This document shows, piece after piece, positions 2 to 25,719 of a DNA stretch of 29,040 nucleotides (its first letter is position 1; every line of letters begins with the position of its first letter). The notes beneath the pieces were generated by a model. The model saw only the letters and a program-made list of their open reading frames with translations, was not told where the DNA came from and did not search any database. Both the position numbers and the translations under genes were made by a program. Source of the stretch: a virus; IMG/VR virus record IMGVR_UViG_3300021246_000037, positions 1-29,040 of that record. One strand, given 5' to 3'.

Positions 2-190
2 ATAGGAGATACTAAACTAATGAAGCCAGGGAAAAACTATAAGTTTAAAGGAAAAAAGGTTACAGAGTTTCCTATGGCTAAGAATGGATTAAGACAAGAA
101 CAAAAAGGTTTGGTTAATTTAGACAATCTACTTAACTTTACAAACTATAACAAACCACAACCAGGTGGATGGTTGAGCAAATATGAATAA
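2..190 (+). CDS. C-terminal end of a virion-type protein (5' partial)
   Basis: An open frame runs from the left edge of the window to TAA at 188-190, giving at least 62 residues. An internal ATG at 20 could be a start, but the frame stays open upstream, so this is probably the tail of a longer gene. The visible part is basic and polar (MKPGKNYKFKGKKV) and ends in PGGWLSKYE. An aromatic, Lys-rich ending of this kind is something I associate with structural proteins of Bacteroidota phages, but that is recall rather than proof. The stop overlaps the start of the HNH endonuclease gene at 183 by eight bases. The position before a large virion gene supports a structural role. Function not recognised. 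Confidence 0.55.
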   Translation: MGDTKLMKPGKNYKFKGKKVTEFPMAKNGLRQEQKGLVNLDNLLNFTNYNKPQPGGWLSKYE

Positions 191-193
191 TAT
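182..193 (+). repeat. Left junction copy of the TATGAA...TAATAT sequence flanking the HNH gene
   Basis: TATGAATAATAT holds the last codons of the upstream gene (SKYE, stop) and the ATG of the HNH gene. A near-copy with three extra A's, TATGAAAAATAATAT, lies at 828-842, where the HNH gene ends (NNYEK, stop) and the next gene starts. The pair brackets the inserted gene. The sequence is AT-rich and short, so chance similarity is possible. Confidence 0.4.
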
Positions 194-7173: not shown

Positions 7174-10100
7174 ATGCCAGATTTTGATAAGTTATTAAAT
7201 CCTATCATTAAAGAAAATAACACATCTCTTCCTGAAATTAACATTCAAGAAGCAAAAAGATATTCTTCTATACAATTTCCAGATTATAATGATAACATTG
7301 TATCAGGAACACCTAATAACGAAGACTTAGAAAGTAAAGCTGAATTATTTGCAAGCATGCCTGCTGATAAACTGAAAGGTATGCCTGTTGGATATGATGT
7401 GCTAGCTGCAAATCAAAGATATGATGCTTATAATCCATTATTGAAAAGTAATGAAGATTTTGCTGCCTATGGTCAAGGGTGGGGATCTAAAATGGTTAAT
7501 GGTGTTTCTAAAGGATTATTACTTACAGGAACAACTTTTTTACAAGGTACTGTAGGACTTGTTAATGGTTTAGTACAATGGGGGAAAGATGGAAGATTTG
7601 CATCTTTTTATGATAATGATTTCAATAGAAACTTAGATAAAATATTAAAAGAGGCTGAAGACAATGCTCCCAACTACTACACTGATATAGAAAAAAATGC
7701 TAAGTGGTATTCTCCTGATTATTTTATGACAGGAAACTTCTTATGGGATGGAGTTGTAAAAAATTTAGGATTTGCTGCTGGAGCTTATTTAACAGGAGGA
7801 GTTTATTCTGCTGGATTAAAAGGACTTGCAGCTCTTCCAGGAGCTGCTAGATTATTATCTATGGGTAGAGCTGCTGAAGCAGTTGCTGCATCTGAAGAAG
7901 CTTTATTAGCAGTGGATAAAGGAACTGAAGCTTATGGTAAGATAAAAGCATTATCTGATTCATATTTAAGAACTTACAATGTTCTTGATAAAGGACATAG
8001 AGCTGTTGTTGCTGGTTTATCTACTAGTGGTGAAGCTGGATTTGAAGCATATCAAAATCTTAATTCATTTAGAGAAGGGAAAATACAAGAATACAAAAAT
8101 ACACATGGTGGTGCTGAACCAACAGGTTCTGCTCTTGAAAAAATTAATAGAGCTGCTGATGATGTAGGTAATGCTTCCTTTTTAGGAAACGTTGTTCTTC
8201 TCACTGCAACTAACTATATTCAATTTCCAAAAATATTAGGAAGTTCTTATAAAGCAGAAAAAGGAATTATAAATAATGTCACTAGAGAAATAGAAGATAT
8301 AACTACAGATGCTGCAGGTAAGTATGTTGTAAAATCTCCTAAGAGTAAAATATTAAACACTTTAAATAAAATAAGACCTTACACCTTTTCTGCATCAGAA
8401 GCTTTTGAAGAGGGAGCGCAGTTTTCAATTGGTGTAGGTGCGAATGATTATTATAATAAAAAATATAATAATGAAGCCACTAGTTGGTTAGATGCTGTAT
8501 ATACAGGAATTACAGAAGGATTTTTATCTGATGAAGGAGCTAAAAATGTTTTAATAGGAGGATTGTCTGGTGCAATAATGATGGGGAAAAGTAGATTCCA
8601 AGAAGCAAAAGAAAAATCATTAAATACAGCAACAGCAGTTAAACAATTTAGTGAATATCAATTATCTGATTTTACTAAAGAAACAAAAGACTCTGTTAAT
8701 AGAGGAACTGTTCTACAACAAGAAAGAGAACAATTATTAAAAGAAGGAAACATCACTGAAAGTAAAGATAAAGAAACAGATTATGTTATTAACTATCTAA
8801 CACCAAGAATTAAATTTGGAAGATTTGATTTAGTTAAATCAGATATTGATGATTTAAGAACTCTTGCTACAAGTGACTTTAATCAATTAGTAAAAGAAGG
8901 AAAAGCTCTTCCTACTGATACCAAAGAAGGATATTTAAAAAGACTGAATGAGTTTGAACAAACTGCTAATAATGTAAAATCGTTATATCAAACTTTGAAT
9001 TTACGTTATAGTGGTCAAGTAGATGAACAAAAAAATCCTATATATACATCTGCTGTAATTGATAAAATGGTATATGCTGCAACTAAAATTTCAGACTATG
9101 AGCAAAGAATACCTTCTTTAACAAGTAAACTAGTAGGAAGTGTAGATAACATAGCTGAAATTTTACAAGATGTTTCTGAAGGAAATTTAGATACGTTCAA
9201 TGCTGCTATTGCTAATCTTGAAGCAAGTGATTTTGTTAATAAAGAAGAACTTGTTGAAGCATTAGATGATTCTGCTTTTATGACTGCTAAAAGAAAATTT
9301 CTTTTAAAGCAATATAGTGATATAAAAAACAATCCAGAAAAATATAAAGAAAAGAAACGTACTGATATAAGTGAAGAAGATCAAGATCTTGGAACAGTTA
9401 AAATTAAAACTAAAGATGGAGAATCTGATTATGTTATAGGAAAAAAATATTTCTTAGGAGAAGTTATAGAATATACAAAAGATGGACAGCCTGTATTTAA
9501 AACTCCTACAGTTAAAATTTTAGGAAAAAATGAAGATGGTACTATACAGATGTATGATGTTAAAACCAAAGAAACATTTAGTGTATCTCCAGAGAAATTA
9601 GAATCTTATAATTTACAAGGATTAGAAGAAACTCTTGCTAACCCTCTTGCAAAATTTACAATAAAAAATAGAAATAAATTATTTCAACACAAAGGATTTA
9701 AAGATAAAGATGGTAATCCTGTACAAGGTAGAGTTAGATATAATGCTGAAAAAGATACGTTAGAGTTTTATTACACTGATGCTAGGGGTAAAGAAAGAAG
9801 TAAACCTGTTACTACAAAACAATTTGAAAAGCAAAAAGGGTTTTCTTTACCAATGATTGAGGCTCTTGAAAAATATGATTCTGAAACACAAACATCAATT
9901 AGAGAACTTCTTGAAGCTTTAGCTACAGACAATGCTGCTCAATATAGAGAAAGTGTTGAAGCAAGAAATAAGATTATAAAAGATCTTTATGAAGATGCTG
10001 TAGAACAAGTTGAATCTATTAATAATAAACTTCAAGCTAATAAAGAAAAGATTCAAAAAATTGCTCAAGAAATAGATGATCTTAAATTAACAAAAACAGG

Positions 10101-13100
10101 TAAGCCTAGAGCTAGAATTAGTAAAACTTTACAGAAAACTTTAGATTCTTTAGCAAAACTTAGAGAAGATATTCAGTTAGAAAATGAAGTGTTGTTAGAT
10201 AGAAAAGCTGATCTTGAATATAACATTCCTTACTTTGAATCTTTAATTGAAGAATATAAAGACTTTCAAGGAGGTAGTCAAGATTTTATTGATCAATTAA
10301 ATAATGATCTTAAAGTGTTAAGTGATTTATATGATGTAACTGATAAAGCTATTACTGACAATAAAAAAATGACAGAACTTATTGATGAGTTATATAAAAA
10401 AGCATTAGAAGGTTTCAATGAATATATTGATAATTTAAGAGCTAGTGTAAAGAGAACAGATAATGTAGTTGTTCCTTTATACTTAGATGAGTTACAAGAG
10501 AGAGTTGAAAAAATGCTAGGAGAGGAAGGAGCTAAATATTACATTGCTAATAAAGAAGGCCTCACTGAACTTGTTTCTAGTTTACAAGATGCTATATATG
10601 ATTATCAAGAAAAGCATGATCTTCCAGAACTAACAAGAAAGGTGGAAGCTCTTCCTAGAGAATTAGAAGAACTTATACAAGGATTGGATGATCTTGTAAA
10701 TAGATATATTGCTACTGGTAAAGTGTTAGATAAGTTCCAATCTTTTGTAGAAGAACAAAATCGTTTAGAAGAAGAGCAAAGAGCTATGGCTACTAACAAA
10801 GAGCGCAAAGCAGAACTCGAAGCAACTAAAGATGTAAAGGCTATACAAAACAAAAGACAAGGAGGGAAGTATGAACCAGTTGCTAAAAAACCAAGTCAAG
10901 TAATTGGTAGAGCTACAATGGCTCCTAATACAGGAAAACCACATCAAGTTAGAGCAAATAACTTTGGAGCAAGATTAGATAGTCTTCCTGAAGGATCTGT
11001 ATATGGTGTATATATTACAAAGAATAATCAGGATGAAAAGATTCCTGGGTTAATGGATCATTTAAGAACAAATGAAAGAGGTAATATAGATGATAGCATA
11101 GACACTGATTCTACAGTGGCTTTATTAATGGTTAATGAAGAAGGTATTCCTGTAGATGAATTTGGGCAAACAATTAGTAATCCAGCAGATTATATTAGCA
11201 AAGGTATATACCAAGTATTTGCTGATGATAAACTTACGTGGGATGCTAAGTGGAGCAAAGATGGCAAGACTGAGGAGAGCATGTTTAGAAAAGGTACTCC
11301 TGAAAATATTGAAAAAGCAGTCAGAAAAGCATATGCTGAGTGGAAAGAAAGTGTTTTAAAATCAAAAGAAATAGGACAGCTACATACTATAGCAGCTTCT
11401 TTTGGTATTCCTCAATATGTGTTAGATGAAAACAATGAACCTGACTATAATACTAGAACTAGTGCTCAAGATGCAGGATTAGTATCTGCACAAGATCTTG
11501 AAACAAAGATAGTGTTGAGAGTTCCAAAAACAGAAGCAGAAGGTTCTCAAGGATTAACATCTTATGAAAGTGCTACAGGTAAAGTGTTTATACAATTACC
11601 AAATGCAATTGTTCCTGTACAAAATAGAAAGCATACAGAAGAAGAAGCCTCATCAATATTTGATGCATTGGTTAAACTAGCTGAATATGCTAATGATATA
11701 TATCAGGATATGAAAGATCCTGAACCTACACGTATATTAGAATATTTAAAATCTGTTGTTTATTGGGGTATTCCTTTGGATGCTCAAGGTAATAAAAAAC
11801 CTGCTGGGTACAATAGTATATTCTTTGAGACTGATCAAAAAACTGGTGCACTTAAATTAACAATCTCTAAAGAAGGGTTAGACTTCACATTCACTCCAAC
11901 AGAACTATTAAGAAATAAAAATTCTGTTATAGAAAAAATCATGAACATTTATGGGAATGTTAATTCTCAATTGCTTGATGATATTAATCGTGAGTATGAG
12001 CAAATAATTTCTATATCAGAAGATGGTCAAGTTGAATCTATAAAATGGCAAAACTACCAAACATATCTTCTATCTAATACATCACCAACAGGTGAAACTA
12101 GAGATACACCATTATCTATAGCAATGAGACCTTTGAATGATGCAGAAGATGTAAATAGATCTGGTATATACTTCTATACAACAGACAATGCTGATGATTA
12201 TGCATTTGCTGAAACTAAGAAAGCTGCTAAAAAAACTAGTAAAAAAAGAGCTCCAGTCAATACAAAAAAATCTACACGTAAAAAACCTACATCTAAGAAA
12301 CCAGCACCAAAGAAAGCTTCGAAAGAGGAAGAGGAAGAAATAGATAACACTGACATAGATCCAGATGGAGAAACTATTAACACATTTACATTTCCTGATG
12401 GAAAGAAAATTAGTTATGTAGTTCATCCTAATATATTAAATATGAAAGGTAAGGGTGTTATCATCCTTAAAGATGAAGAAGACTACGATGCTGTTGTTGA
12501 GAAAATTGGTGCTAATCCTGCAAACAAAGGTAAGAATGCTGAACAGCTTTTATTAAGAACTATTACAAAACATGCAACAACTGTTCTTGAAACTAGAGAG
12601 GAAGAAACAGTTGAAGAAGAAGAAGGTGATGAAGATTTTGACACCTTGTTCACTAAAGGAGTAACAGTTGGTAAAACAACTCCTAAATCTAAAAAATCTT
12701 TAAAAGAAGAAGAAGGAGAAGAAGCACCTGTTAGTAATAACTTAAAAAAGTTAATGGATGCTGCAAAGAATGAAGATGAAGATGAAGAAGCATTGCGTGA
12801 AAAAATATTAAATTCTGTTGATGAAATTGAAACAGAAGATTGGAATAGTATAGAAGAGTTTATTAAAAAAGTTCTTCCTATAATTCCTTTCTATAGAGTT
12901 AAAAATTTAATCAAAGCTACTAATGGAAGACAAGCTTATGGTATGTTTAAAGATGCTGCAGTTTATGTATATGAAAATGCAGAGGTTGGAACAACATACC
13001 ACGAAGTATTCCATGCTGTTTGGAGAATGTTTACATCTCCACAAGAACAACAAGCAATCCTTAATGAATTAAGAAATAGAAAAGGAACTTTCTTTGATAG

Positions 13101-16100
13101 AAAATCAAGAACAGATATTTCTTTTTCTGATGCTACAGATATTCAATTAGAAGAACATTTAGCAGAGCAGTTTAGAGATTATGTACAAGAAGGAAAAGTT
13201 CCTAGTAAACCAGCTGAAGGAAAACCTTTTATAGTAAAACTATTTGCTGATCTTGTTAAGTTCATTAAAGAAATGTTCTTGGGACCAAATGCTCAAAGTA
13301 ATACAGATAAACTATTTGAAAAAATAACATCAGGATATTTTGCTAAAGCAACTCCTTATGCTGCAGAATTATCTTTTGCTAATAAAGGATTTATTGAAAT
13401 AAATGAAGTTACAGATACAGAAGGTGCTCAATTTAGTGAAGTGGTTAGACTGTCAGATAAGATACGTCATGAAGTTATAGAACATATGACTTACTCTACA
13501 TTATTAAAATTAACTGAGAATGATGCTAGTTTATTTCAAGATCCTAAAATATCTAAATTAGATTTATATGATGGATTAAAACAAGACATTTTAACTAGGA
13601 TAGCTAAAGATGCTGTTGTTGTAGAAAAATTATATAATGAAGAGAAAATAGGAAAGAGAGTTAGAAATGAAGAACTACAAAGAATTGATGGTCTCACTAC
13701 AGAAATACAAGAAGGTTGGGATTCTATTGTAGATCAATATGAAGACTATCTAAGAGGATATAATGTAGAGTTTGATGAAAATGATAATATACAACTTAAT
13801 GATGACAACATCGTTAAAGAAAGTGATAAGTTTGATGCAACTAAAATAGATGCATTTAAAAAAGCAAACAGAGCTATTAAACTTTTACTTTCTACAGTTC
13901 CTTATTTAAATGAAAAAGGTAAACTAGATAAGTCTTCTATCAATGGAGCTAGACTTATTCCTGTAAGTCAAGTTAATATTACATTATTAAATACGTTATC
14001 AGACGCAAGAAATATAGATGAGATGTTAGAGAAACTAAAAACTCTAGCAAAGAATGATCCTAATTATAAAACATTATATAAACGTATCACTAAGAAAGAC
14101 GTTATTGAAGATGGACTTGCTTTAAACAAAGTTAAAACAAGAGGTAATTTACAATTGATCAGTTCTATATGGTCATTGTTTAAAAAATATAATTCTACAG
14201 TTAAAGTGGTAAGTGTCCTTGAGAATGGTGAAGTTATTCTTAAGAATGCATTTCTATCTAATGCTGCAGAGCAATTAAGACAAACCTATCTTAATTCTAT
14301 TACAACATCAGCTAAATCAGGAAAAGGATTGTTTAAATATTCTCCAAAAGCCAAAGGTTATTTTGTTAATAGAAAGAAATTAAATGACACTAGTTTAGTT
14401 TCAAAAACAGGAATGGTTAAATTCTTAAACGAATTGGGCGTTACATTCACTGTTAGTGAATTAAACAGATTAGAAATAGAAAATCCTAAAGAATATGCAA
14501 AGTTTAAATCAGCTGTAGGAGGATTAAAAAGTAGTCTTTATTCAATAGGTAAGGTTTCTTCATTCTATATGTCCACTCTATCTATAGGTAATAGACTTTA
14601 CGAACTTGCAGAGATTAAAAGTTTAGTTAGTAATCCAGAAACAGATAGTACATTTTACAATATCAATGGAGAAATGACTCAGAGTTATATTGGTCCTAAT
14701 GCAGCAAGTCAATTGTTTGAAACATTAGATCAAATAAATGCATTAACTGCAGAAGAGTTATCTACCACTCCTCAATTCTCTTATTTGTTATCAGATTCAT
14801 TTGTAAAAGGATCTACTATTCTTAAAAAACTATTTGCATCAAACTTTGCTAAAAAAGAATCTAAATCAGAAACTCCATTATTTACTGTTGGTTATGTTGG
14901 AGGATTTGAAAACAATATGACAGGTAAGAAAAAACAATCTTCTAAATTAAATTATAAAGATAGATTGTTACAAGAACTCAATCTTAACATCAAAGGATGG
15001 TTTTTAAACCTTGTTCCTGGAGATGCTTCTATTGAACATATGATTTATATGGGCAATGAGTTTGATTACAAGATGTTATCAACTGGAATGGGTGCTATAC
15101 ATAAAGTGTTTAAAGATTATTTCCTTTCAGAATTAGCTGTATCTCAAGAAAAAGACAGACCTTTTGTAGAAGCTGAAGGAAGAAAACGTACAGATTTACG
15201 TTTCTTTAAATCTATATTAGCTAATACAAAAGAATCTGAAGAGGATAAAAGAAATAAACTTCATGATGCAATTGTTGAATATGCTAAGACAAATTCTTTT
15301 GAAGAAACATATTCAAAATTTGAGAAACAAATAAATAGTGCAATTGATAATTATATATCTACTAGTTCAGAAAGCTTAAAAGAAACACTAGAATCTTATG
15401 GATTAATTGGTGTAAATGATTTTGGAAAATTAACAATCCAAAATACAATGTTCCCTAAAGGAATGTCTGAGAAAGAGATGGGCTTACAGTTAAAAGTTGT
15501 CACTGCTAACTACATGGTTTCTAATATTGAGATGCATAAGCTTCTTTATTCTGATCCATATCAATATGCAGATGAGTTAAAGAGAACTAAAAGTTTTAAC
15601 TCTCCTAGACAATTAATAATTGGTGGAAAAGATTCTATTAATCAATTGTTCAATGCAATTTGGAATAAAGGATTCAAAAAAGGAGATATAGGATATACAG
15701 ATTTCACAAGAGGTTATTTTAGAACAGTGACACATCAAGATGTTATTGGAGAAATAGATCTTCCAGGATATGAACCTTATACTGAAACAGATGGTGCAGG
15801 TATTATATCTTATCCTGCATATCGTCATTTTAGAATTAGAGCAGCACAATGGTCTGATGGAGATGAGAGACAATATAAATATGAAATGGCTTGGGAGAAG
15901 CAAGACAAAGCAATGAAAGCTGAGAAAGCAGGTGATAAAAAACTTGCTGATGAGTTATATGATTCTCTTTCTTTAGAAGAAATACAAATATTAGATGCAG
16001 GAAATCCTAAAGTGCAATCAGCATTTACAGACTTAAAACCTATTGTGTCTGGTAACAAAGCAGATGGTAATACATTCAATGATGTTGTCTTAGACAAGTT

Positions 16101-19100
16101 TGCATTATATCCACTATCTTATAGATTAATGAGTGAATTAAATCCTAATTCAAATGCTGTTAAGCTGTATAATAAAATGCAAAATGAAAATGTAGATTAT
16201 ATAGTGTTTAATTCAGGAAGAAAGGTGGGAGCAATGAATGATCATCCAACATATGATTCTGAAGGAAACTTTAATAATGCTGCTTATATAGCTAAAGGTA
16301 AGAAAAGAAATATAATAAATGTTCCTTTTGAAATAATGTCTGTTCAATCAGAAGTTCCTTCTAAAGAAAAAGATGAAATTAAAAGAGCAACACAAGTTAC
16401 AAAACTTGTTACATTAGATACATTAGAAGCAGGAATTCCAACAGACTTTATGACTGATGAAACTTTTGAGAATAGATATGAAGCTTGGTATAATTTAGAT
16501 GAGAATGCTAAAAAAGAAGCATCTCCTTTATTTAAAGAAATACAAAACAATCAAGCTCTTCTTGAATCTATTATTAATAAAGGATATAATAACTTATTAA
16601 AATCATTAGGGATACAAGAAACAATCACTACATCTAAAGAAGGTGTAAAAACTAAAGCATTTAAAATTGTTAATTTTTCTTCAGCTGCTACCACTTTACG
16701 TAATGAGATTTTAAAAAGACACGTTAATAGTAATATTATAATGGCTTTAAATGATTTCATTAAAGGTGAATCAGTGCTAGAAGCTACACCAGCATACCAA
16801 CAAATCAGAAACATTCTATATTCTATTGCTGATAGAGAAGTTATTTCTGGAAAAATAACAGGAGGTATGAAGGTGCAAATTTCTTCTACAATGTTAGAAG
16901 AAAATAAAATCAAGCCTATCACTAGAAAAATAAAAGGTAAGAATACGTTAGTGTTTCAATCTGATGTCTTAGATTTTTATTCTATGAAAGAAGGAGATAA
17001 AGAAATCAATGTATGTCAAATGATGGTGGGAAGATGGTTTAAGAGTCCTCTATCAGATAAAGATCTTTTAGACTATTTAAATAATACACCTGAAGGACAA
17101 GAGATACTTAAAGGATTTGCATATCGTATTCCTACACAGAAACAAAACTCTATTGACGTATTCAAAATAAAACAATTTCTTCTTGAAGAGTTCAAAGACT
17201 CTGTTGTAGTTCCTTCTGCTTTAGTTGCTAAGGTGGGATCAGATTTTGATATTGATAAACTTTCTATGTATTTTAAAAATGTAAAAGTTAATAGTAAAGG
17301 TTATCCTCAACTAATTAAATTTACAACAGGTGAAGAAACTTTAAAAGATCGTTACTATGACTGGGTATTGGAAAATTCTAATAGAGATACAAAGAATTAT
17401 ATCCAATGGTTGGCTAAACCTTCAGTGAAAGAAATCAAAGAAAAATTCAATGATTTAAGAAATCAAATTAAAGATAAATACAAAGGAGATATTAGAATAA
17501 AAAGAGAAGAGCTTTATAATTCATACCAAGAGAATATATCTGTAGCAAAAGAAAAGCTTACAGATCAAGAATTATATATCAAAGAATTATTTGCTGAATC
17601 TTCAACAGTGTTCTTTAATCTTCCTCAAGAAGAAATAGATGATTATTTTAATTTAAAAAATGAATTACGATTAAGAGGATTGGATGGTCCTGTAGAATTA
17701 GAAAACTATTTAGGACTAACATTATTAAAAATACAATCTTCAGAAAATGCTGAAGTGATTGATACATTAAATGATCTTGCTGAATATTACAAACAGCAAC
17801 TAGTGGCTATTGGTGCAAAACAAGAGTATGTAAATACTATTACAAAAGATGCACTAGCTATGTTTAAACAAGATAAAAATATTTCATTATCACAAATCAC
17901 TTCAAAAATGAACATTATTAGAGATGAAGTTGAAGAAAGATATGGAATAGAAATGATGAGTAATAATTTAGAAGTTGCTAAAGAGATAGCAGAAACTGAT
18001 GAATTACCTACATTGGAAGAATTTTCTAAACTATCAGAGTATGAGCAAAACACTAGAAAAGCTGTTGAGAATGCATATATAAAATCATTGCAAGACATTA
18101 CAGTACATAAGTCTAATTATGCAAGGTTGATTCAACCTAACTCTGCAGAGGATATGAAATCTCTTTCTAAAAAAATTGCTACAAAAGTTTCAGGAAGTAC
18201 ATTCAATTACAAAGATGCAGGAAACATGTTAAACAGAATGTTTATGTCTTCTCTAAGACATGCATTTGTTACAGGTAAGTATGCTATTGGTATTGCTGCT
18301 GTGAATCAAACTAATCATTCCTTAAATCAAAGACAGTTAGTTTATATAGATAAAAGAAAATTAGCTGATGTTGATGAAAAAGATGCATTATGGTTAGCTG
18401 ATGCTTCTATACATTTTAGAAACTACAATTCTGTAGTGACAAAAGATAAAGGAAGCGTAGCTACATTATCAAAAATTAGAAATGCTGAAAGAAGTAAAAA
18501 GTTTCCAAATGGTCAAGACATCTCTGATATCATTGGACAATTTATAGATGGATATGTAGATATCTCTAAGGGGCCTTGGATTATGGAATTAGGAGCAACA
18601 CCTAACGTAGCTTCTACTTGGTTGTTTTTAGTTAAGATAGGAGTTCCTATTAATGAGATTGCCTACTTTATGAATCAACCTATCATAAGAGATTATTTAA
18701 AATCAATTGAGAAAGCTGGGTATTCTTATTTATTCATGCCTAAGTTTGTTACAAGCATGCTAAATGAATACAATCCTAAAAAAGAATTAGATGCTAAAAA
18801 ACTATTTAACGATAGAAAAGGATATAGAATTCCAAGTGAATCTGAACTTGAAGGAATGTTAGGAAAAACTACTAGTGAGTTAACTAGAGCTGAAAAATAC
18901 AATCAACAAATGATCTTGTTAGAGTTTATGAAATATGCTAAACTAGGAGAACAATTGTTTCACGTAACACAAGGAACTAACTTTGATACATCCAACTTTA
19001 ATGATCCTTATCTTGTTTGGAAGAAATCAAAACAATTAGAGAAAGCTCGTAAGACAGTGATATCTGATGTTGATGAAATTCTTGATAATTCCTTCTTAGG

Positions 19101-20565
19101 AGATTTACAAGACAAAATTGGAGATTTTAGAAATGCTCTTTCTGAAATATTAAAATCAGATAAACGTAGAACTAGAACTATTATACAAAAAGTTCTTGAA
19201 CCTTACGTTGATACTAATGATAATGATTTTGTTAAACTTTCTCGTAAAGCTGTAAATGATTTCTTTGATTGGGCAGTACAATGTAAATCAGGAAATGAAT
19301 CTATCAATAAAGATATTGCTAGAATATTATTAGAAGAAGGTGGAATTGGTGAGGAAGTTATAAGTTTTGTTAAATCTGTAAAAAGAAATCCAGAACATCC
19401 TCTTCATGATAATGAAATAATTAATATTATTGAAGTGGTTCCTTCTAAGTTATCTGGAGAAGGTCATCCTACTAATATTAAAATTAAGGGGTTAGATAAC
19501 AAAGTATATGATCAAAATAATATCATATTTGCTTTTAGAGAACTTCGTGATTATTTAAAAGGACAAAAGAAATCAGAGTCTAATATATATGACAAACTAA
19601 AACTATTGGCAGTTTTACAATCTGGATTATCCACTTCTCCTATATCGTTCACTAATCTTATTCCTTATGAAGATTTTTCAGAAATATATGGTAAAGTGTT
19701 AGATAGATTAGAGGAGCTACCTAACATGGAAGATTTCTATAACCTAGGAGTGTTCCAAAGAAACAATTGGAATAATGATGACATTGTTCCAACTAAAGCA
19801 GCTATTAAAACATTCATGGGAGTATATAATCCAGCAATGAAGTATTTACCAAAGAATGTAAAAGCTGAAGTTGAAAAAGGAAATATTCCTCCAGTGGTAT
19901 CTATATCTACATTATCTCCAGAAGGTAAAAGCGAATACATTGTATATACATGGAAAGAAATACCTAAAGGGAAAAAAGAATCTCAGATGAGAGAAGAAGG
20001 TGATTTCTCTTTCTTGAAAAAAGGATTGTTTAAGAAGATGTATGATATTAGAGATTTAGAATATATACAGTCATCAAATGACAAAGACTATTTTGTTTAC
20101 AAAGCTGTTAATGCTTGGGGAGATGGATTTAGAGCTCAAGAATTCTATGATGAAGCTCGTGAATCAGTTATAGAGAATGGATTTATTAAAGTTGAAGAAA
20201 CACCAGACAGTGTAGTTATAAATACATTTGGTAAAACTGGTAAGAAAAGTTTAGGTGATAAGTTAAAGGATGCTTCTAAAAGTAAACGTAAACTTCAACA
20301 AAATTTATTTGAACAAAAAGATGAAGATATTCCATTATCAGATGTAGATGATTCTTCAGACGATAAACTTTTTTCACAAATTAATAATGTAAATGTTCTA
20401 TCTTTACAATTGAAAGATGGAAACACATATTTAGTTAGTGATATAACAAATCAAATGATGACAGATATGGGATATACACCTTCAGAAATTGGTAAATTTA
20501 TAAAACAATATAGAAATAGTCCTGAAGGTTTACCAAGTATTAATAGAACTAGTAAAAAATGTTAA
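7174..20565 (+). CDS. Giant virion RNA polymerase of crAss-like type fused to a zincin metallopeptidase
   Basis: A 4463-aa protein with several regions. Residues about 1-560 hold hydrophobic segments (110-129, 196-225, 315-330, 460-470) that could touch or cross membranes. About 900-1240 is coiled-coil-like. Residues 1682-1717 are a Lys/Arg/Ala/Pro tract followed by Glu-rich stretches to about 1876. HEVFH (1943-1947) with LEEHLAEQF (1992-2000) marks a zincin protease. The polymerase core follows. IVFNSGRKVGA (K3017) and TQVTK (K3077) are candidate beta-type active-site lysines. YRIPTQ (3317-3322) matches the RxPT of beta-prime, and GSDFDIDKLSM has the three metal-binding aspartates of the DxDxD motif at 3357, 3359 and 3361. 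TGKYAIGIAAVNQTNHS (3700-3716) and YVDISKGPW (3794-3802) are further motifs I recall from this family. Known family members are packaged and transcribe early genes after injection. The metallopeptidase suggests processing of the giant chain, which is inference. The C-terminus meets the next gene in the same frame after TAA-GCT. Confidence 0.85.
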   Translation: MPDFDKLLNPIIKENNTSLPEINIQEAKRYSSIQFPDYNDNIVSGTPNNEDLESKAELFASMPADKLKGMPVGYDVLAANQRYDAYNPLLKSNEDFAAYGQGWGSKMVNGVSKGLLLTGTTFLQGTVGLVNGLVQWGKDGRFASFYDNDFNRNLDKILKEAEDNAPNYYTDIEKNAKWYSPDYFMTGNFLWDGVVKNLGFAAGAYLTGGVYSAGLKGLAALPGAARLLSMGRAAEAVAASEEALLAVDKGTEAYGKIKALSDSYLRTYNVLDKGHRAVVAGLSTSGEAGFEAYQNLNSFREGKIQEYKNTHGGAEPTGSALEKINRAADDVGNASFLGNVVLLTATNYIQFPKILGSSYKAEKGIINNVTREIEDITTDAAGKYVVKSPKSKILNTLNKIRPYTFSASEAFEEGAQFSIGVGANDYYNKKYNNEATSWLDAVYTGITEGFLSDEGAKNVLIGGLSGAIMMGKSRFQEAKEKSLNTATAVKQFSEYQLSDFTKETKDSVNRGTVLQQEREQLLKEGNITESKDKETDYVINYLTPRIKFGRFDLVKSDIDDLRTLATSDFNQLVKEGKALPTDTKEGYLKRLNEFEQTANNVKSLYQTLNLRYSGQVDEQKNPIYTSAVIDKMVYAATKISDYEQRIPSLTSKLVGSVDNIAEILQDVSEGNLDTFNAAIANLEASDFVNKEELVEALDDSAFMTAKRKFLLKQYSDIKNNPEKYKEKKRTDISEEDQDLGTVKIKTKDGESDYVIGKKYFLGEVIEYTKDGQPVFKTPTVKILGKNEDGTIQMYDVKTKETFSVSPEKLESYNLQGLEETLANPLAKFTIKNRNKLFQHKGFKDKDGNPVQGRVRYNAEKDTLEFYYTDARGKERSKPVTTKQFEKQKGFSLPMIEALEKYDSETQTSIRELLEALATDNAAQYRESVEARNKIIKDLYEDAVEQVESINNKLQANKEKIQKIAQEIDDLKLTKTGKPRARISKTLQKTLDSLAKLREDIQLENEVLLDRKADLEYNIPYFESLIEEYKDFQGGSQDFIDQLNNDLKVLSDLYDVTDKAITDNKKMTELIDELYKKALEGFNEYIDNLRASVKRTDNVVVPLYLDELQERVEKMLGEEGAKYYIANKEGLTELVSSLQDAIYDYQEKHDLPELTRKVEALPRELEELIQGLDDLVNRYIATGKVLDKFQSFVEEQNRLEEEQRAMATNKERKAELEATKDVKAIQNKRQGGKYEPVAKKPSQVIGRATMAPNTGKPHQVRANNFGARLDSLPEGSVYGVYITKNNQDEKIPGLMDHLRTNERGNIDDSIDTDSTVALLMVNEEGIPVDEFGQTISNPADYISKGIYQVFADDKLTWDAKWSKDGKTEESMFRKGTPENIEKAVRKAYAEWKESVLKSKEIGQLHTIAASFGIPQYVLDENNEPDYNTRTSAQDAGLVSAQDLETKIVLRVPKTEAEGSQGLTSYESATGKVFIQLPNAIVPVQNRKHTEEEASSIFDALVKLAEYANDIYQDMKDPEPTRILEYLKSVVYWGIPLDAQGNKKPAGYNSIFFETDQKTGALKLTISKEGLDFTFTPTELLRNKNSVIEKIMNIYGNVNSQLLDDINREYEQIISISEDGQVESIKWQNYQTYLLSNTSPTGETRDTPLSIAMRPLNDAEDVNRSGIYFYTTDNADDYAFAETKKAAKKTSKKRAPVNTKKSTRKKPTSKKPAPKKASKEEEEEIDNTDIDPDGETINTFTFPDGKKISYVVHPNILNMKGKGVIILKDEEDYDAVVEKIGANPANKGKNAEQLLLRTITKHATTVLETREEETVEEEEGDEDFDTLFTKGVTVGKTTPKSKKSLKEEEGEEAPVSNNLKKLMDAAKNEDEDEEALREKILNSVDEIETEDWNSIEEFIKKVLPIIPFYRVKNLIKATNGRQAYGMFKDAAVYVYENAEVGTTYHEVFHAVWRMFTSPQEQQAILNELRNRKGTFFDRKSRTDISFSDATDIQLEEHLAEQFRDYVQEGKVPSKPAEGKPFIVKLFADLVKFIKEMFLGPNAQSNTDKLFEKITSGYFAKATPYAAELSFANKGFIEINEVTDTEGAQFSEVVRLSDKIRHEVIEHMTYSTLLKLTENDASLFQDPKISKLDLYDGLKQDILTRIAKDAVVVEKLYNEEKIGKRVRNEELQRIDGLTTEIQEGWDSIVDQYEDYLRGYNVEFDENDNIQLNDDNIVKESDKFDATKIDAFKKANRAIKLLLSTVPYLNEKGKLDKSSINGARLIPVSQVNITLLNTLSDARNIDEMLEKLKTLAKNDPNYKTLYKRITKKDVIEDGLALNKVKTRGNLQLISSIWSLFKKYNSTVKVVSVLENGEVILKNAFLSNAAEQLRQTYLNSITTSAKSGKGLFKYSPKAKGYFVNRKKLNDTSLVSKTGMVKFLNELGVTFTVSELNRLEIENPKEYAKFKSAVGGLKSSLYSIGKVSSFYMSTLSIGNRLYELAEIKSLVSNPETDSTFYNINGEMTQSYIGPNAASQLFETLDQINALTAEELSTTPQFSYLLSDSFVKGSTILKKLFASNFAKKESKSETPLFTVGYVGGFENNMTGKKKQSSKLNYKDRLLQELNLNIKGWFLNLVPGDASIEHMIYMGNEFDYKMLSTGMGAIHKVFKDYFLSELAVSQEKDRPFVEAEGRKRTDLRFFKSILANTKESEEDKRNKLHDAIVEYAKTNSFEETYSKFEKQINSAIDNYISTSSESLKETLESYGLIGVNDFGKLTIQNTMFPKGMSEKEMGLQLKVVTANYMVSNIEMHKLLYSDPYQYADELKRTKSFNSPRQLIIGGKDSINQLFNAIWNKGFKKGDIGYTDFTRGYFRTVTHQDVIGEIDLPGYEPYTETDGAGIISYPAYRHFRIRAAQWSDGDERQYKYEMAWEKQDKAMKAEKAGDKKLADELYDSLSLEEIQILDAGNPKVQSAFTDLKPIVSGNKADGNTFNDVVLDKFALYPLSYRLMSELNPNSNAVKLYNKMQNENVDYIVFNSGRKVGAMNDHPTYDSEGNFNNAAYIAKGKKRNIINVPFEIMSVQSEVPSKEKDEIKRATQVTKLVTLDTLEAGIPTDFMTDETFENRYEAWYNLDENAKKEASPLFKEIQNNQALLESIINKGYNNLLKSLGIQETITTSKEGVKTKAFKIVNFSSAATTLRNEILKRHVNSNIIMALNDFIKGESVLEATPAYQQIRNILYSIADREVISGKITGGMKVQISSTMLEENKIKPITRKIKGKNTLVFQSDVLDFYSMKEGDKEINVCQMMVGRWFKSPLSDKDLLDYLNNTPEGQEILKGFAYRIPTQKQNSIDVFKIKQFLLEEFKDSVVVPSALVAKVGSDFDIDKLSMYFKNVKVNSKGYPQLIKFTTGEETLKDRYYDWVLENSNRDTKNYIQWLAKPSVKEIKEKFNDLRNQIKDKYKGDIRIKREELYNSYQENISVAKEKLTDQELYIKELFAESSTVFFNLPQEEIDDYFNLKNELRLRGLDGPVELENYLGLTLLKIQSSENAEVIDTLNDLAEYYKQQLVAIGAKQEYVNTITKDALAMFKQDKNISLSQITSKMNIIRDEVEERYGIEMMSNNLEVAKEIAETDELPTLEEFSKLSEYEQNTRKAVENAYIKSLQDITVHKSNYARLIQPNSAEDMKSLSKKIATKVSGSTFNYKDAGNMLNRMFMSSLRHAFVTGKYAIGIAAVNQTNHSLNQRQLVYIDKRKLADVDEKDALWLADASIHFRNYNSVVTKDKGSVATLSKIRNAERSKKFPNGQDISDIIGQFIDGYVDISKGPWIMELGATPNVASTWLFLVKIGVPINEIAYFMNQPIIRDYLKSIEKAGYSYLFMPKFVTSMLNEYNPKKELDAKKLFNDRKGYRIPSESELEGMLGKTTSELTRAEKYNQQMILLEFMKYAKLGEQLFHVTQGTNFDTSNFNDPYLVWKKSKQLEKARKTVISDVDEILDNSFLGDLQDKIGDFRNALSEILKSDKRRTRTIIQKVLEPYVDTNDNDFVKLSRKAVNDFFDWAVQCKSGNESINKDIARILLEEGGIGEEVISFVKSVKRNPEHPLHDNEIINIIEVVPSKLSGEGHPTNIKIKGLDNKVYDQNNIIFAFRELRDYLKGQKKSESNIYDKLKLLAVLQSGLSTSPISFTNLIPYEDFSEIYGKVLDRLEELPNMEDFYNLGVFQRNNWNNDDIVPTKAAIKTFMGVYNPAMKYLPKNVKAEVEKGNIPPVVSISTLSPEGKSEYIVYTWKEIPKGKKESQMREEGDFSFLKKGLFKKMYDIRDLEYIQSSNDKDYFVYKAVNAWGDGFRAQEFYDEARESVIENGFIKVEETPDSVVINTFGKTGKKSLGDKLKDASKSKRKLQQNLFEQKDEDIPLSDVDDSSDDKLFSQINNVNVLSLQLKDGNTYLVSDITNQMMTDMGYTPSEIGKFIKQYRNSPEGLPSINRTSKKC

Positions 20566-20568
20566 GCT

Positions 20569-23500
20569 ATGCCTTGTAAAATTCAAATAAAAGAAAATAT
20601 TACTCAAGATATTGAAAACAAAACAGATTATGCTTTTAATAAATCTTTAAAAGATGCACAAGATATTGCTAGAGATGTTAATGCAGAGTATGGTATAAGC
20701 ATTGTAAAATTTGTACAAAGTGCTTCAGATTTTATAGATAGGATAATTAATATTCCTCAAGATCTTATTGATAGATATTATAATCATGAACTATCTCTTG
20801 AGGAAGAAGATGCTCGTAAAGCTCAACAAGAAGACGCTGAAAGGACTGGTGAAGAATACAAAGATGATTACATGTTTCAAAAAGAAACTGAAGAACTTCC
20901 ATCATCTAGAGCATCAGAAGAAACTTTAAATAAAGTGAAAGCACTTATTGCTAAAATGGGTGTTAAAATACAAGACCTTCAAGACTATCTAAAAGGAAAC
21001 CCTGATGTAAATACAACTGATGTAAATGGTTTAGCTGATCTTGTAAGAGGTATTGTTGCCATTGCTGAAGGTAAAGAAGAGGTAGCTCTTACAGAAGAGA
21101 TGGTACACATTGCTACAGCTATTATAGAGAAGGTAGATCCAAAGTTTGTAACAGAAATGATTTCTAAAATAGACAGATTTGCTATTTATAAAAAAGTTCT
21201 TAATGCTTATAAAGACGATAAGAACTATCAACTACCTAATGGAAAACCTGACATTAGAAAGATTAAAAAGGAAGCTGTAGATAAACTTATAGTTGAACTT
21301 ATAATCAATAAGTCTGAGGGCTCTGTAGAGTTTCCTGAACTAATGGAAGAACTTCCTAGAACAATGATTCAAAAAATATGGAATGCTATTCTTGATTTCT
21401 TTTCAGGAAGATATAGAAAAGCTAACATAGATATATTTGAGCAAGTAACAGAAAGAATTTTAGAAGGAGAAGTTGAGAACATTGAAAACATTTCTGATAT
21501 GGAAGGAATTTTTCTTCAGAAGAAATCTTCTAAACTATCTGAAAAACAAAAAGAATTACAAGAACTAATTCTTGATACAAAAGATAGAATCAAAAAGAGA
21601 GAGAGTAAAGAAAAGGTTGATCCTTTATTAGCAGATAGTGAAGAAGCTTCTAATTTTTATGTAGAATTAGAAACTAATGGCAATGAAAGAAAAATTACCA
21701 AACGTGTTACTGATAGAGTTAAAGCTTGGTATGAACAAAGATTTGGAAAGAATAAAAAGTTTACTAAAGAAGAAGAGTTCATTAATGACTTCAAAAGAGA
21801 CAATGGTATAAAGTATCATTTCTATTTTGAAGACATACATGATAGATATTTTAAAGAAGATGGAACTAGAAGAGAAACTCCTCTTTCTAGAACTGTAGAT
21901 GTGGTTGGTTCTGATGAAGAAATCTATGAAAGACTTGAGCAATATTATGTTGATTTAGTTAAGAAGTTTTCTGAAGGTAAAAAGAATCCTTTAGTATTCT
22001 CAGAAGTAGTTGTATATGATCCTAAAGAACAAGAAGCTGGAACCATTGACCTTTTAATAATAGAAGAGAATGGTAAAGCTAATATATTTGATTGGAAATT
22101 TATGACTGTATCTGCCACTGCAGAAGATGTAGCTTGGTATAAACAAGGAGCATATAATATACAACTTGGAAGATATAAAGATATACTAAGAGATTCTTAT
22201 GGGGTGAAAGAGTTTGGACAGATGCGAGCTATTCCTATACTAATGGATGTTAAACGTAAGAATTGGAGAAATCCAGATTCTGATTTAGTAGTTAAAGGAA
22301 TTGAGATTGGTTCTGTAAATGTTAGTAAAATAAAAGATTTTACATTAGTTCCTGTTTCAGAAGAAACTGAATCAACTGGTAATGAGGAATTAGATGAAGC
22401 AATTACACAATTAAATGCAGTGTTAAAACAAGTAGGGAAAGAAGATGTCACTAATGAAGATGAGAAAAGATTCAAAGGTGAAAGAATGAATGCTCTTTCT
22501 AAAGCTATACGTGCTGCACAAAGTGCTAATAATCTTGTTCCATTGATTCAAGTAATTAAATTGATGCGAAAAGAAGGGCAAAATTTAATCAATGATTGGG
22601 AAACAATTTATAATAAAAAAGCAGCTTCTGCTGATGATATAAATGATGCACAACTTTCTGAATATGCAGATAGCCTTAGAGAGTATATGGCCATATCACA
22701 AGTTTTTGGCTCTATGAATGACTTAATAGGAAATTTAATATATGATAAGTCTGAAATAAAAAATGCTAAAACTGATAAACAAAAAGAAGATTTAGCTAGA
22801 CGTAAAGCTTATTTAGAAAATATAGACAATGAAGCAAAACTTATTCGTCTATCTTCTAAAAAGGTAGAAAAGATCACTGGAAAGTTTGCAGATAAGTTTA
22901 TGGGAGAAAGAAATCTTGTACAAGGTTTATTATCTCCACAAGCTGTTTGGTCTGGAATAGGTTCTTTCTTTAGAGGGGCATCAGAGGTTCCTTTACCTTC
23001 TGTTAGTATATTGTTTAAATTAGTTACAAACGCTAAGGGTAGAGCTAGAAGAGATGCATTGAAAGAAGTAGAAGAGTTAATGGCTATCAGAAAAAGAATA
23101 ACTGATAAAGGAGGAGATGTTAGAAAGTATATACAACAACTGTATCAAAAAGATGATAAGAATAAATTAGTTAATAAAATTATATATAAATATAAAAAAG
23201 AATTTACTGATCTAGTTGATAAAAATGCTGCTGAAGAATTCCCTAGTAAAGAATGGTTATACAATAATATAGATAGAGAAGGTTATCAAAAAGAAGCAAA
23301 TGAAGTTTTAGAAAAAAGAATAGAAAGACTTAAACGAATCTATTCTGAAGATAAGGAAATGATGAACAAACTTATTCTTCAAGAAAAAAGAATGTTTGAT
23401 GTTACTAGAAATGATTTTACAGGTTGGAATAATTATATCATCAAGAGAAATCCTGCAAGGTCTATAGACAAAAATGGAATTGAAACTTCTCCATGGTTAT

Positions 23501-25719
23501 CAGATGAATATAAAAATATTCAAAATGATAAAGAACTTCTTGATTTATATAATTTTTTAATTAAAACAAATAAAAAAGCATCTGATGTTGGTTATTTAGA
23601 AAACAAAGTTCATTCTACATTTCTACCATTTGTTAGAAAATCAATGGCTGAAAGTCTTGCATGGGATTTTTCTCTTTCTTCTATAATGAATTTTGGTAAT
23701 GGATTATCTCTACAAGCAGATGATATTGGTTTTGGTAATGTAAATGAATTAACAGGTGAAATACAACATAGTATACCAAAGTATTACACTTCAGATTTTT
23801 CAATGAAAAAAGATGAAGCAGGTAACACTATACATGACTATACAGATGTAAGTGAAGACTTGTTTAAGAATATGATTTTATATATAAATCATATGCACAA
23901 CTATAAATATCTTTCTGAAGTTGAAGGTCAAGCACAGCTTATTAAAACTGTTGAGGGTTTTAAAAAACATTTAGCTACAACAAGATCAGGAGATGTTATA
24001 ATAAAACCTAATGGTGAGCCAGAAGAATTAAAAGGGAATGAACAAAATACTAAAATATTTGATGACTTCCTAAGAGCTTTATTGTATGAGCAAAAGTATC
24101 CTCTTTCTGATACAGATACTTCTATAAGCACAGGTCTTGTAAAACAAATGAAAAAACTTATAAATGGTGTTTCAAAAGCTGCAGGAGGTAAAGAAGTTTT
24201 TACAGATCTTGATAAACCTAGTGCCACTTCTTTGTTTAAATCAATGGATAGTTTAAATAGAGCTTTTCAATTAAAAACATTAGGATTGGACATTGTATCA
24301 GGAGCAGTGAATTTATTTGGTGCAAACATTCAAGTTATTACACAGGCAGGTAATTATTTTACTAAATGGGATTATTTTAAAAACTTCAATGGTTTAATAG
24401 GAAGTAGATTTAAAAACGATGATGATCGTAAAATGTTTTTAAAATTAATAGACACTTTCATGCCTCTTAAAGATGATCCTACATATGACAAATTAAAAGA
24501 AGCAGGGCTATCAAAAATAACTCAACAAAACTTTTCTGATTGGTTAATGTTATTTATGAGAGAACCTGAACAACATGTTGAGAAATCTATATTTCTAACT
24601 CTATTAGATAATTCAATGATTGTTGATGGAAAAATTGTTAACATTAGAGAATTTGTAAAAAGTAAATATAAAGATAGATGGAACTCTGCAAGTGATTATG
24701 CAGGTTCATCTAAAAAAATAGAAGATGAAATAAAAGAATTAAAGAGTACAAGTTCTATAACTAATACAATGAAGTTAGAAAATGATGAACTTGTTATTCC
24801 TGGTCTTGATTTAAACAATTTTAAAGAAATTGATAGAGTTACAAAGCTTAGTAGACGTATTTCTAGAAATGCAGTGGGGGGTATGTCAGATTCTGATATA
24901 AATAGAATGTCAATGAGTGTTTGGGGAAGATCTATGATGGTATTTAAGAACTGGATTCCTAAACTTCTTGATACACGTTTTGGAGAATTAAGAAAAATAT
25001 CAGATGATTTCTCTGTAACAATAGATGAAAATGGTTTAACTGAAGGGGAGAAATATGATATTGGTAGAGTTAGGCTTTGGTGGGGAGTGTTAGCATCTTC
25101 TATAAATGATAAAAGTTTTAATGTTTTAAATATATTACAAGTTAATGATAAGGGTCTTCTTTTATTAGATAAAATGTATATAGATTATAAAGCATCTTAT
25201 GAGAAAAGAACAGGTGAAAAATTTACCATGACAAAAGAAGATTTCAATGAAATGATTAGAACAAATTTAAGAAATCAAGTACAGGAGTTAACAATGCTAC
25301 TTATTTTATTTGGTTTAAAATTATCTATGGGAATGTTACCTCCTGATGATGATGAAGATAGAGCTAGTAAGAACTTTTTTAGATATTCTCAAAGAGTTGT
25401 AGATAAATTTGTTGGAGAGCTTTCATTCTTTTATAATCCATTAGAAGCAGAACATCTTTTAAGTGGTTCAATGTTCCCTGCAATTGGAGTTTTCTCAGAT
25501 GTAATAAAGTTCACTTCACATTTTTCTAGTCAAGTTTTAGGTTTTGAAATATCTGATCCAACTCTATCTGAAGAAGATGTTAGAAAGAAAGCACAGCCTG
25601 TTAAATATTTAGCTAAAATGTTACCTGTAACAAAATCGTTAATTACATATGGAGCTATATTTAATGATGACTTTGCTAAAGAATTTGATATTACAATACA
25701 GAAAAATAATAATAGATAA
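20569..25719 (+). CDS. Giant virion-associated protein with degenerate zincin and PD-(D/E)XK nuclease domains
   Basis: A 1716-aa protein, probably packaged with the polymerase. The N-terminal part (about 140-300) reads like the zincin of the preceding giant protein, but HExxH has become EEMVH (176-180), so zinc peptidase activity is probably lost. The tail WNAILDFFSG...DIFEQVTERILEGE (271-301) parallels the zincin tail there. A PD-(D/E)XK nuclease centre of RecB/Cas4 type follows: E479 in FSEVVVYD, D494 in GTIDLL, D508 and K510 in IFDWK, then QLGRY (532-536). The remaining 1150 residues are mostly helical with hydrophobic stretches (about 1238-1264 and 1570-1590) and conserved-looking MVFKNWIPKLLDTRFGEL. 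The start MPCKIQIKENIT sits one codon past the stop of the upstream gene, in the same frame, suggesting termination-reinitiation. The nuclease target could be host DNA, phage DNA ends or RNA; the sequence does not say. Confidence 0.75.
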   Translation: MPCKIQIKENITQDIENKTDYAFNKSLKDAQDIARDVNAEYGISIVKFVQSASDFIDRIINIPQDLIDRYYNHELSLEEEDARKAQQEDAERTGEEYKDDYMFQKETEELPSSRASEETLNKVKALIAKMGVKIQDLQDYLKGNPDVNTTDVNGLADLVRGIVAIAEGKEEVALTEEMVHIATAIIEKVDPKFVTEMISKIDRFAIYKKVLNAYKDDKNYQLPNGKPDIRKIKKEAVDKLIVELIINKSEGSVEFPELMEELPRTMIQKIWNAILDFFSGRYRKANIDIFEQVTERILEGEVENIENISDMEGIFLQKKSSKLSEKQKELQELILDTKDRIKKRESKEKVDPLLADSEEASNFYVELETNGNERKITKRVTDRVKAWYEQRFGKNKKFTKEEEFINDFKRDNGIKYHFYFEDIHDRYFKEDGTRRETPLSRTVDVVGSDEEIYERLEQYYVDLVKKFSEGKKNPLVFSEVVVYDPKEQEAGTIDLLIIEENGKANIFDWKFMTVSATAEDVAWYKQGAYNIQLGRYKDILRDSYGVKEFGQMRAIPILMDVKRKNWRNPDSDLVVKGIEIGSVNVSKIKDFTLVPVSEETESTGNEELDEAITQLNAVLKQVGKEDVTNEDEKRFKGERMNALSKAIRAAQSANNLVPLIQVIKLMRKEGQNLINDWETIYNKKAASADDINDAQLSEYADSLREYMAISQVFGSMNDLIGNLIYDKSEIKNAKTDKQKEDLARRKAYLENIDNEAKLIRLSSKKVEKITGKFADKFMGERNLVQGLLSPQAVWSGIGSFFRGASEVPLPSVSILFKLVTNAKGRARRDALKEVEELMAIRKRITDKGGDVRKYIQQLYQKDDKNKLVNKIIYKYKKEFTDLVDKNAAEEFPSKEWLYNNIDREGYQKEANEVLEKRIERLKRIYSEDKEMMNKLILQEKRMFDVTRNDFTGWNNYIIKRNPARSIDKNGIETSPWLSDEYKNIQNDKELLDLYNFLIKTNKKASDVGYLENKVHSTFLPFVRKSMAESLAWDFSLSSIMNFGNGLSLQADDIGFGNVNELTGEIQHSIPKYYTSDFSMKKDEAGNTIHDYTDVSEDLFKNMILYINHMHNYKYLSEVEGQAQLIKTVEGFKKHLATTRSGDVIIKPNGEPEELKGNEQNTKIFDDFLRALLYEQKYPLSDTDTSISTGLVKQMKKLINGVSKAAGGKEVFTDLDKPSATSLFKSMDSLNRAFQLKTLGLDIVSGAVNLFGANIQVITQAGNYFTKWDYFKNFNGLIGSRFKNDDDRKMFLKLIDTFMPLKDDPTYDKLKEAGLSKITQQNFSDWLMLFMREPEQHVEKSIFLTLLDNSMIVDGKIVNIREFVKSKYKDRWNSASDYAGSSKKIEDEIKELKSTSSITNTMKLENDELVIPGLDLNNFKEIDRVTKLSRRISRNAVGGMSDSDINRMSMSVWGRSMMVFKNWIPKLLDTRFGELRKISDDFSVTIDENGLTEGEKYDIGRVRLWWGVLASSINDKSFNVLNILQVNDKGLLLLDKMYIDYKASYEKRTGEKFTMTKEDFNEMIRTNLRNQVQELTMLLILFGLKLSMGMLPPDDDEDRASKNFFRYSQRVVDKFVGELSFFYNPLEAEHLLSGSMFPAIGVFSDVIKFTSHFSSQVLGFEISDPTLSEEDVRKKAQPVKYLAKMLPVTKSLITYGAIFNDDFAKEFDITIQKNNNR

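What the first reader, a model, noticed from the sequence alone, without database searches (positions are those of the whole stretch)
13000..13170. Zincin metallopeptidase fused in front of the virion RNA polymerase
HEVFH (1943-1947) with an acidic partner in LEEHLAEQF (1992-2000) gives the ligands of a zinc peptidase, about 1400 residues before the polymerase active site in the same chain. A protease in cis with a packaged polymerase suggests self-processing of the 4463-aa chain, for example to release the polymerase after injection or during assembly, or cutting of a host protein on entry. If processing occurs, the mature virion should contain fragments rather than the whole chain.
Basis: partly seen in the sequence, partly recalled or inferred. 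Interest (0 to 1): 0.72.

Follow-up and report, generated by a model that had tools for sequence, protein, structure and literature searches.

The report
Zinc-protease domain in phage RNA polymerase
A gut-type phage carries a real zinc-protease-like domain inside the giant protein that also holds its injected RNA polymerase, but it is probably not there to cut the polymerase free; in relatives its metal site flips repeatedly between two matched forms, which nobody appears to have described.

Summary
HEVFH lies at residues 1943-1947 (nt 13000-13014) and LEEHLAEQF at 1992-2000 of a 4463-aa ORF, 1414 residues before the polymerase DFDID. Homologues, two structure models and fold comparison make it an M34-like (PPEP/ATLF-type) zincin domain. 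The chain is a fusion of the crAss-like phage proteins gp47 (cargo, with the zincin at its C-end) and gp50 (virion RNA polymerase). A zincin beside the crAss RNA polymerase is already annotated in GenBank.

Self-processing is not supported. Phages with cargo and polymerase on separate chains keep the zincin intact. Some fused chains have a degenerate zincin or none detectable. phi14:2, whose polymerase was shown active, lacks it.

New here: in an RNAP-anchored sample, 60 of 76 close relatives carry HExxE instead of HExxH, always with Lys/Arg in place of Glu just before the third ligand (residue 1993). The two sites switch together in 11 of 11 independent pairs on the polymerase tree and about 7 of 7 on the domain's own tree. 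The HExxE form shows no relaxed constraint. The site is under selection in both forms. I favour an injected peptidase acting in trans; a structural role is nearly as likely. Experiment must decide.

The parts
7174..20565 (+). 4463-aa chain: gp47-like cargo module + zincin + gp50-like virion RNA polymerase, fused
7174..12123 (+). N-terminal cargo module (aa 1-1650); aa 101-745 match phiCrAss001 gp47 92-845 at E 3e-28
12151..12828 (+). Variable linker (about aa 1660-1885), Lys-rich then Glu/Asp-rich, the most indel-rich internal stretch of the chain
12850..13353 (+). Zincin domain (about aa 1893-2060); aa 1901-1950 is among the most conserved 50-aa blocks of the whole chain (mean identity 0.69; polymerase catalytic block 0.73)
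13000..13014 (+). HEVFH (aa 1943-1947): zinc ligands H1943 and H1947, general base E1944; residue 1947 is the position that switches H/E in relatives
13147..13173 (+). LEEHLAEQF (aa 1992-2000): E1994 probable third ligand; E1993 is the coupled switch position (E/K/R); E1998 second acidic residue
13771..20223 (+). Virion RNA polymerase module (about aa 2200-4350)
17242..17256 (+). DFDID polymerase metal-binding motif (aa 3357-3361)
20569..25719 (+). 1716-aa ORF, homologue of phiCrAss001 gp49 (third RNAP-associated cargo protein)
   Evidence: E 1e-6 to gp49; closer to ORFs next to the RNAP in L114 and L154

Best explanation
[quoted passage not shown] here the two modules are one chain. Shown: motif, homology, module order, predicted fold, and strong conservation of the active-site block. 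In this phage the site is complete for zinc binding and hydrolysis. In close relatives the site exists in two co-adapted forms, HExxH+Glu1993 and HExxE+Lys/Arg1993, exchanged many times with no loss of constraint. Inferred: the domain is a metal-dependent peptidase, at least in its HExxH form, that is packaged and injected with the polymerase and acts in trans on a host or co-injected protein. Freeing the polymerase by cutting its own chain is not its general job.
For: Homology and module order. Two models from different alignments give the same topology, with HExxH on one helix and the E motif on a later one; both match PPEP and ATLF-type M34 zincins best (Z 7.0 for PPEP-2 and 6.6 for PPEP-3). 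Sequence profiles independently rank PPEP-1 as the nearest real protease, aligned from the HExxH onward, though not significantly (E 0.09). PPEPs share the Glu-Glu tandem whose second Glu binds zinc (PMC12828418). H1943, E1944 and E1994 are kept in 159 of 159 parsed domains. aa 1901-1950 is as conserved as the polymerase core. At matched polymerase divergence, zincin identity is the same within the HExxE and HExxH classes (0.498 v 0.496; 0.264 v 0.262). HExxE is compatible with activity: CLCA1 is a zinc-dependent, self-cleaving protease with HEXXE (PMC6851300). Split lineages keep the intact site. gp47, gp49 and gp50 are virion proteins in phiCrAss001.
Against: No activity, metal or substrate has been shown. 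The PPEP match is modest (Z about 7; unrelated best matches can reach 7-8) and Foldseek alone gives nothing significant in the PDB. The M34 catalytic Tyr (7 residues before the third ligand) has no equivalent by spacing (A1987). Some members are clearly degenerate (WExxR) or absent, so catalysis is dispensable in some phages. E1944 survives even in the degenerate clade, so its conservation does not prove catalysis.
Confidence: 0.42

Rival explanations
1. The domain is mainly structural: a zincin-fold adaptor that joins the cargo module to the polymerase, held together by zinc in the HExxH form and by an E1947-K/R1993 salt bridge in the HExxE form. Catalysis is incidental or lost.
For: The switch is repeated and charge-coupled and parsimony prefers reversals (17 changes v 27 irreversible losses), easiest if the forms are near-equivalent. 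A clade with WExxR keeps the domain in about 5500-aa chains. Non-catalytic ATLF-like domains are among the structural matches (that they are non-catalytic is my own knowledge).
Against: The active-site block is more conserved than the rest of the domain. H1943, E1944 and E1994 are invariant in both forms. L271 appears to swap ligands (HExxE...H), which suggests metal binding is retained (one sequence).
Confidence: 0.35
2. One reading: the zincin cuts its own chain near the seam, releasing the polymerase during assembly or after injection.
For: It sits at the seam, next to a variable linker. Where the genes are split after the zincin, the gene boundary lies just downstream of it. L114 lost fusion and zincin together.
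Against: Intact zincins in split lineages; fused chains with degenerate or undetected zincin; no association after correction for relatedness.
Confidence: 0.13
3. The HExxE form is the start of decay of an unneeded protease, and HExxH phages are those that have not yet lost it.
For: HExxE and degenerate forms are common.
Against: All HExxE forms carry the same K/R partner, H1943/E1944/E1994 stay invariant, and no relaxation of the domain is seen.
Confidence: 0.08

Closest known systems
crAssphage ZA QAU03812.1, annotated 'putative RNAP associated protein fused to zincin protease' (and Rudgehvirus jaberico YP_011108629.1, note ZnMc_tr)
   Same: A zincin at the C-end of the RNAP-associated cargo protein next to the crAss virion polymerase.
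   Different: In these Intestiviridae the polymerase is a separate gene; the crAssphage ZA motif is LHESLH...EEFLVES and is not matched by the family profile at E<1.
phiCrAss001 gp47 and gp50 (Steigviridae)
   Same: Homologous cargo module, zincin (HEAFH...LEENMAE) and polymerase (DFDVD); all virion proteins.
   Different: Two genes on opposite strands with different timing (PMC8375218); in the window they are one chain.
Pro-Pro endopeptidases PPEP-1/-2/-3 and ATLF-type domains (MEROPS M34)
   Same: Best structural matches; HExxH plus a Glu-Glu tandem with the second Glu as zinc ligand.
   Different: Secreted bacterial enzymes; catalytic Tyr not found here by spacing; sequence similarity not significant (E 0.09).
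P23-45 gp96 tail tape measure protein
   Same: Virion RNA polymerase and a metallopeptidase domain in one giant ejected chain (PMC10770324).
   Different: Polymerase at the N-end, peptidase domain in a tape measure protein; no homology tested.
CLCA1
   Same: HEXXE zinc-dependent metalloprotease, shows that the second His can be Glu in an active enzyme (PMC6851300).
   Different: Animal secreted protein; no relation claimed.

Membership tests
Gluzincin-type metallopeptidase (HExxH + E) | HExxH on a helix | tested here: met
   HEVFH 1943-1947 in predicted helix 68-81 of the model, pLDDT about 88
Gluzincin-type metallopeptidase (HExxH + E) | Third ligand Glu on a later helix | tested here: met
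   E1994 in predicted helix 117-134, pLDDT about 89-96; invariant in 159 parsed relatives
Gluzincin-type metallopeptidase (HExxH + E) | Zinc binding and E1944-dependent peptide hydrolysis | not testable with these tools
   needs protein
M34 (PPEP/ATLF) | Fold like solved M34 domains | tested here: inconclusive
   best VIA-align rows are PPEP-2 Z 7.0, rmsd 3.5, 125 aligned and ATLF domains; second model 6.6 to 8.1; below the safe level
M34 (PPEP/ATLF) | Significant sequence similarity | tested here: inconclusive
   PPEP-1 E 0.088 with profile A2; no Pfam family of this kind hit
M34 (PPEP/ATLF) | Glu-Glu tandem with second Glu as ligand | tested here: met
   E1993-E1994; PPEP-1 Glu184-185
M34 (PPEP/ATLF) | Catalytic Tyr 7 residues before third ligand | tested here: not met
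   A1987 at that spacing; nearest aromatic is F1984. Judged by spacing only. So not filed as an M34 member
crAss-like virion RNA polymerase | DxDxD region homologous to phi14:2 RNAP | tested here: met
   profile A3 v 6VR4 E 3.9e-28
crAss-like virion RNA polymerase | Present in virions | not testable with these tools
   shown for phiCrAss001 homologues only
crAss gp47-type RNAP-associated cargo protein with zincin | N-module homology and zincin at its C-end, next to the polymerase | tested here: met
   aa 101-745 and 1870-2042 match gp47 in order
Self-processing polyprotein | Protease intact wherever the parts are fused | tested here: not met
   degenerate in fused L219, L220, L222, L223; no zincin detected in fused L236, L243, L287
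Self-processing polyprotein | Cleavage at a fixed site | not testable with these tools
   needs virion proteomics

The most novel reading that the evidence does not exclude
The zincin site of this virus family is a selected two-state module. HExxH with Glu before the third ligand and HExxE with Lys/Arg there are interchangeable, co-adapted forms that lineages exchange repeatedly. Either they are two active metal sites with different ligand sets (2 His + 1 Glu v 1 His + 2 Glu), or a zinc site that evolution replaces by a salt bridge and restores.
Probability: 0.5. Interest if true: 0.7.

Novelty: new variant of a known kind. Interest (0 to 1): 0.5.

Why it matters
crAss-like phages dominate many human gut viromes, and how their giant packaged polymerase is delivered is open. 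A conserved peptidase-like domain at the joint between delivery module and polymerase is a direct handle on that question. The repeated, charge-coupled replacement of a zinc-ligand His by Glu would be a rare natural experiment on what a zincin active site can tolerate.

Tried and rejected
Motif-anchored sampling made HExxH look universal. That was ascertainment bias: the search patterns required YHE[AV]FH or EExxAExFR. The polymerase-anchored sample corrected it. Fusion predicting presence of the zincin: raw Fisher p 1e-8, but 2.7 pairs for, 0.6 against and 8.7 tied after correction for relatedness, p about 0.6: rejected as evidence. Domain swapping as cause of the H/E switching: the domain's own tree, with the two switch columns masked, still needs 14 changes, at least 7 on well-supported branches. 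Pfam, PHROGs and NCBIfam gave no family for the domain. Foldseek against the PDB gave nothing significant; against viral models it found only crAss-like and other uncharacterised phage proteins. Plasmids: no match. phmmer of the raw polymerase half against the PDB found nothing; a profile was needed. The papers on the crAss-like gene survey (2018) and on the phi14:2 polymerase (2021) are not in the library, so what they say about a zincin could not be read.

Full report
What was checked. The window is a 29,040-base virus record, listed by the tool as a virus record of exactly that length. ORF 7174-20565 encodes 4463 aa. HEVFH starts at residue 1943 (nt 13000) and LEEHLAEQF spans 1992-2000. Of 2000 shuffles of the chain, 25 contain any HExxH and none contains HExxH...EExxAE.

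What the chain is. BLAST of the chain against proteins of named crAss-like phages shows three blocks in order: aa 101-745 match phiCrAss001 gp47 (E 3e-28), aa 1870-2042 match the C-end of gp47 (E 7e-12), and aa 3209-3375 match gp50 (E 2e-8); the next ORF matches gp49. A profile of the DFDID region hits the solved phi14:2 virion RNA polymerase at E 3.9e-28. So the window protein is a fused gp47+gp50 and the virus is crAss-like. Fused chains also occur in Suoliviridae (cr50_1, cr118_1 and cr1_1). Steigviridae have the two as separate genes on opposite strands. All three proteins are found in phiCrAss001 virions (PMC10172136; PMC6235969, with gel bands at 150, 270 and above 300 kDa against predicted 154.5, 262.5 and 276.9 kDa).

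What the domain is. A 66-sequence alignment gave a model with the core at about pLDDT 88 or more: a beta hairpin, the HExxH helix, and a later helix with E1994. VIA-align ranks Pro-Pro endopeptidases PPEP-2 and PPEP-1 first (Z 7.0 to 6.2), then ATLF-type domains and PprI. A second model, from an alignment made only of HExxE relatives, has the same topology and the same neighbours (ATLF-type Z up to 8.1, PPEP-3 6.6). A sequence profile puts PPEP-1 as nearest real protease, aligned from the HExxH onward, at E 0.09. PPEPs share the Glu-Glu tandem whose second Glu binds zinc (PMC12828418). Each line is weak alone; together they make an M34-like zincin fold likely. The M34 catalytic Tyr is not found by spacing, so I do not file it as an M34 member.

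Is it known? The presence of a zincin next to the crAss polymerase is therefore prior knowledge at annotation level. I found no full-text paper in the library that discusses its function.

A control that changed the picture. Loci found through the zincin motif nearly all had HExxH, but the search patterns favoured it. Sampling by the polymerase motif instead (80 contigs) gave 77 with the domain: 60 HExxE, 16 HExxH, 1 truncated. Every HExxE form has Lys or Arg at 1993, the residue before the third ligand; HExxH forms have mostly Glu. Over all parsed domains the counts are HExxE 61 of 61 with K/R, and HExxH 87 E, 4 K, 7 other. Residue 1951, one helical turn after 1947, also tracks the state.

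Repeated, coupled switching. On a polymerase tree of 129 rows the H/E state needs 17 changes (at least 11 forced by well-supported branches), and in all 11 independent pairs residue 1993 changes the matching way (sign test p about 0.001). On the domain's own tree, with the two columns masked, it needs 14 changes (at least 7 forced) and about 7 of 7 pairs are coupled (p about 0.016). A bootstrap tree of 59 close relatives needs 13 changes (bootstrap range 11-13; at least 6 forced), with about 6 of 6 pairs coupled (p 0.03). Irreversible loss would need 27 changes against 17. The window and its near twin L010 are HExxH; their sisters L115 and L133 are HExxE. At equal polymerase divergence the zincin is as conserved among HExxE pairs as among HExxH pairs. 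The HExxE form does not look like decay.

Decay does occur elsewhere. Five loci (L219, L220, L222, L223, L226; four of them with chains of about 5500 aa) have WExxR and no third-ligand Glu. L271 has HExxE...H where its sister L264 has HExxH...D, a possible ligand swap. No zincin was found in 42 of 183 distinct polymerase-anchored loci, about a quarter of them because the contig ends too soon.

Self-processing. The idea predicts an intact protease wherever the parts are fused and no need for it when they are split. The data show intact zincins in split Steigviridae, degenerate or undetected zincins in some fused chains, and a split phage with a studied polymerase (phi14:2) without a detectable seam zincin. 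L114 is one clean example in favour: in the window's own clade, it has two ORFs and no zincin. Across the tree the association is not significant once relatedness is counted. I put self-processing at about 0.13.

Mechanism I commit to. Shown: a zincin-like domain with a complete site, at a fixed place between cargo and polymerase modules, with its active-site block (aa 1901-1950, mean identity 0.69) as conserved as the polymerase catalytic block (0.73), behind a variable charged linker. Inferred: it is packaged and injected with the polymerase and works as a metallopeptidase on another protein. Nearly as likely: it is a structural joint in which zinc and a Glu-Lys salt bridge are interchangeable. 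HEXXE in CLCA1, an active zinc-dependent self-cleaving protease (PMC6851300), shows that the HExxE form need not be dead.

Limits. Models are of domains without metal and no coordinates could be inspected, so ligand geometry rests on secondary structure and homology. Tree depth and long branches make the exact number of switches uncertain. HMM absence may hide very diverged domains.

Noticed in passing
L007 ORF from 21723 (aa 519), L055 ORF from 2228 (aa 1115), L073 ORF from 2095 (aa 1230), L056 aa 1445, L091 ORF from 15311 (aa 336), phi14:2 gp076 (L350): A second zincin-like motif type, [LTV]HExxHxxT...EF[AVI][AS]E, turns up in other cargo ORFs of crAss-like phages, including phi14:2; it looks like a different family from the seam zincin.
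   Followed up: partly
L077, L044, L068, L037 (C-terminal part of the same chain): A further HEFGH/HEFAH domain lies downstream of the polymerase motif in these chains and is weakly similar to the seam zincin, perhaps a duplicate.
   Followed up: no
L060 and L090, about 10 kb into the locus: Insertions of roughly 450 and 170 aa between HEAFH and EEKLADEF inside the zincin; inteins or inserted domains are possible.
   Followed up: no
L264 and L271: Sister chains with HExxH...D and HExxE...H: a possible swap of His and acidic ligands between positions.
   Followed up: partly
window 12211-12783: Lys-rich (KKTSKKRAPVNTKKSTRKKPTSKKPAPKK) then Glu-rich linker before the zincin, the most length-variable internal stretch of the chain among relatives.
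   Followed up: partly
MT774375 (cr50_1) QOR58058, MT774379 (cr118_1) QOR58373: GenBank names these fused cargo-zincin-polymerase proteins 'DNA helicase'; they carry the polymerase DFDxD motif and the zincin, so the name looks wrong.
   Followed up: yes
window 183-839 and 27507-28181: Free-standing endonuclease-like ORFs: zinc-ribbon/HNH-looking (by eye) and GIY-YIG (Pfam E 1e-9).
   Followed up: no
L114: ORF1 tail has repeated PTQ/QPTSE-type linkers where the zincin would be; the polymerase ORF starts right after it.
   Followed up: partly
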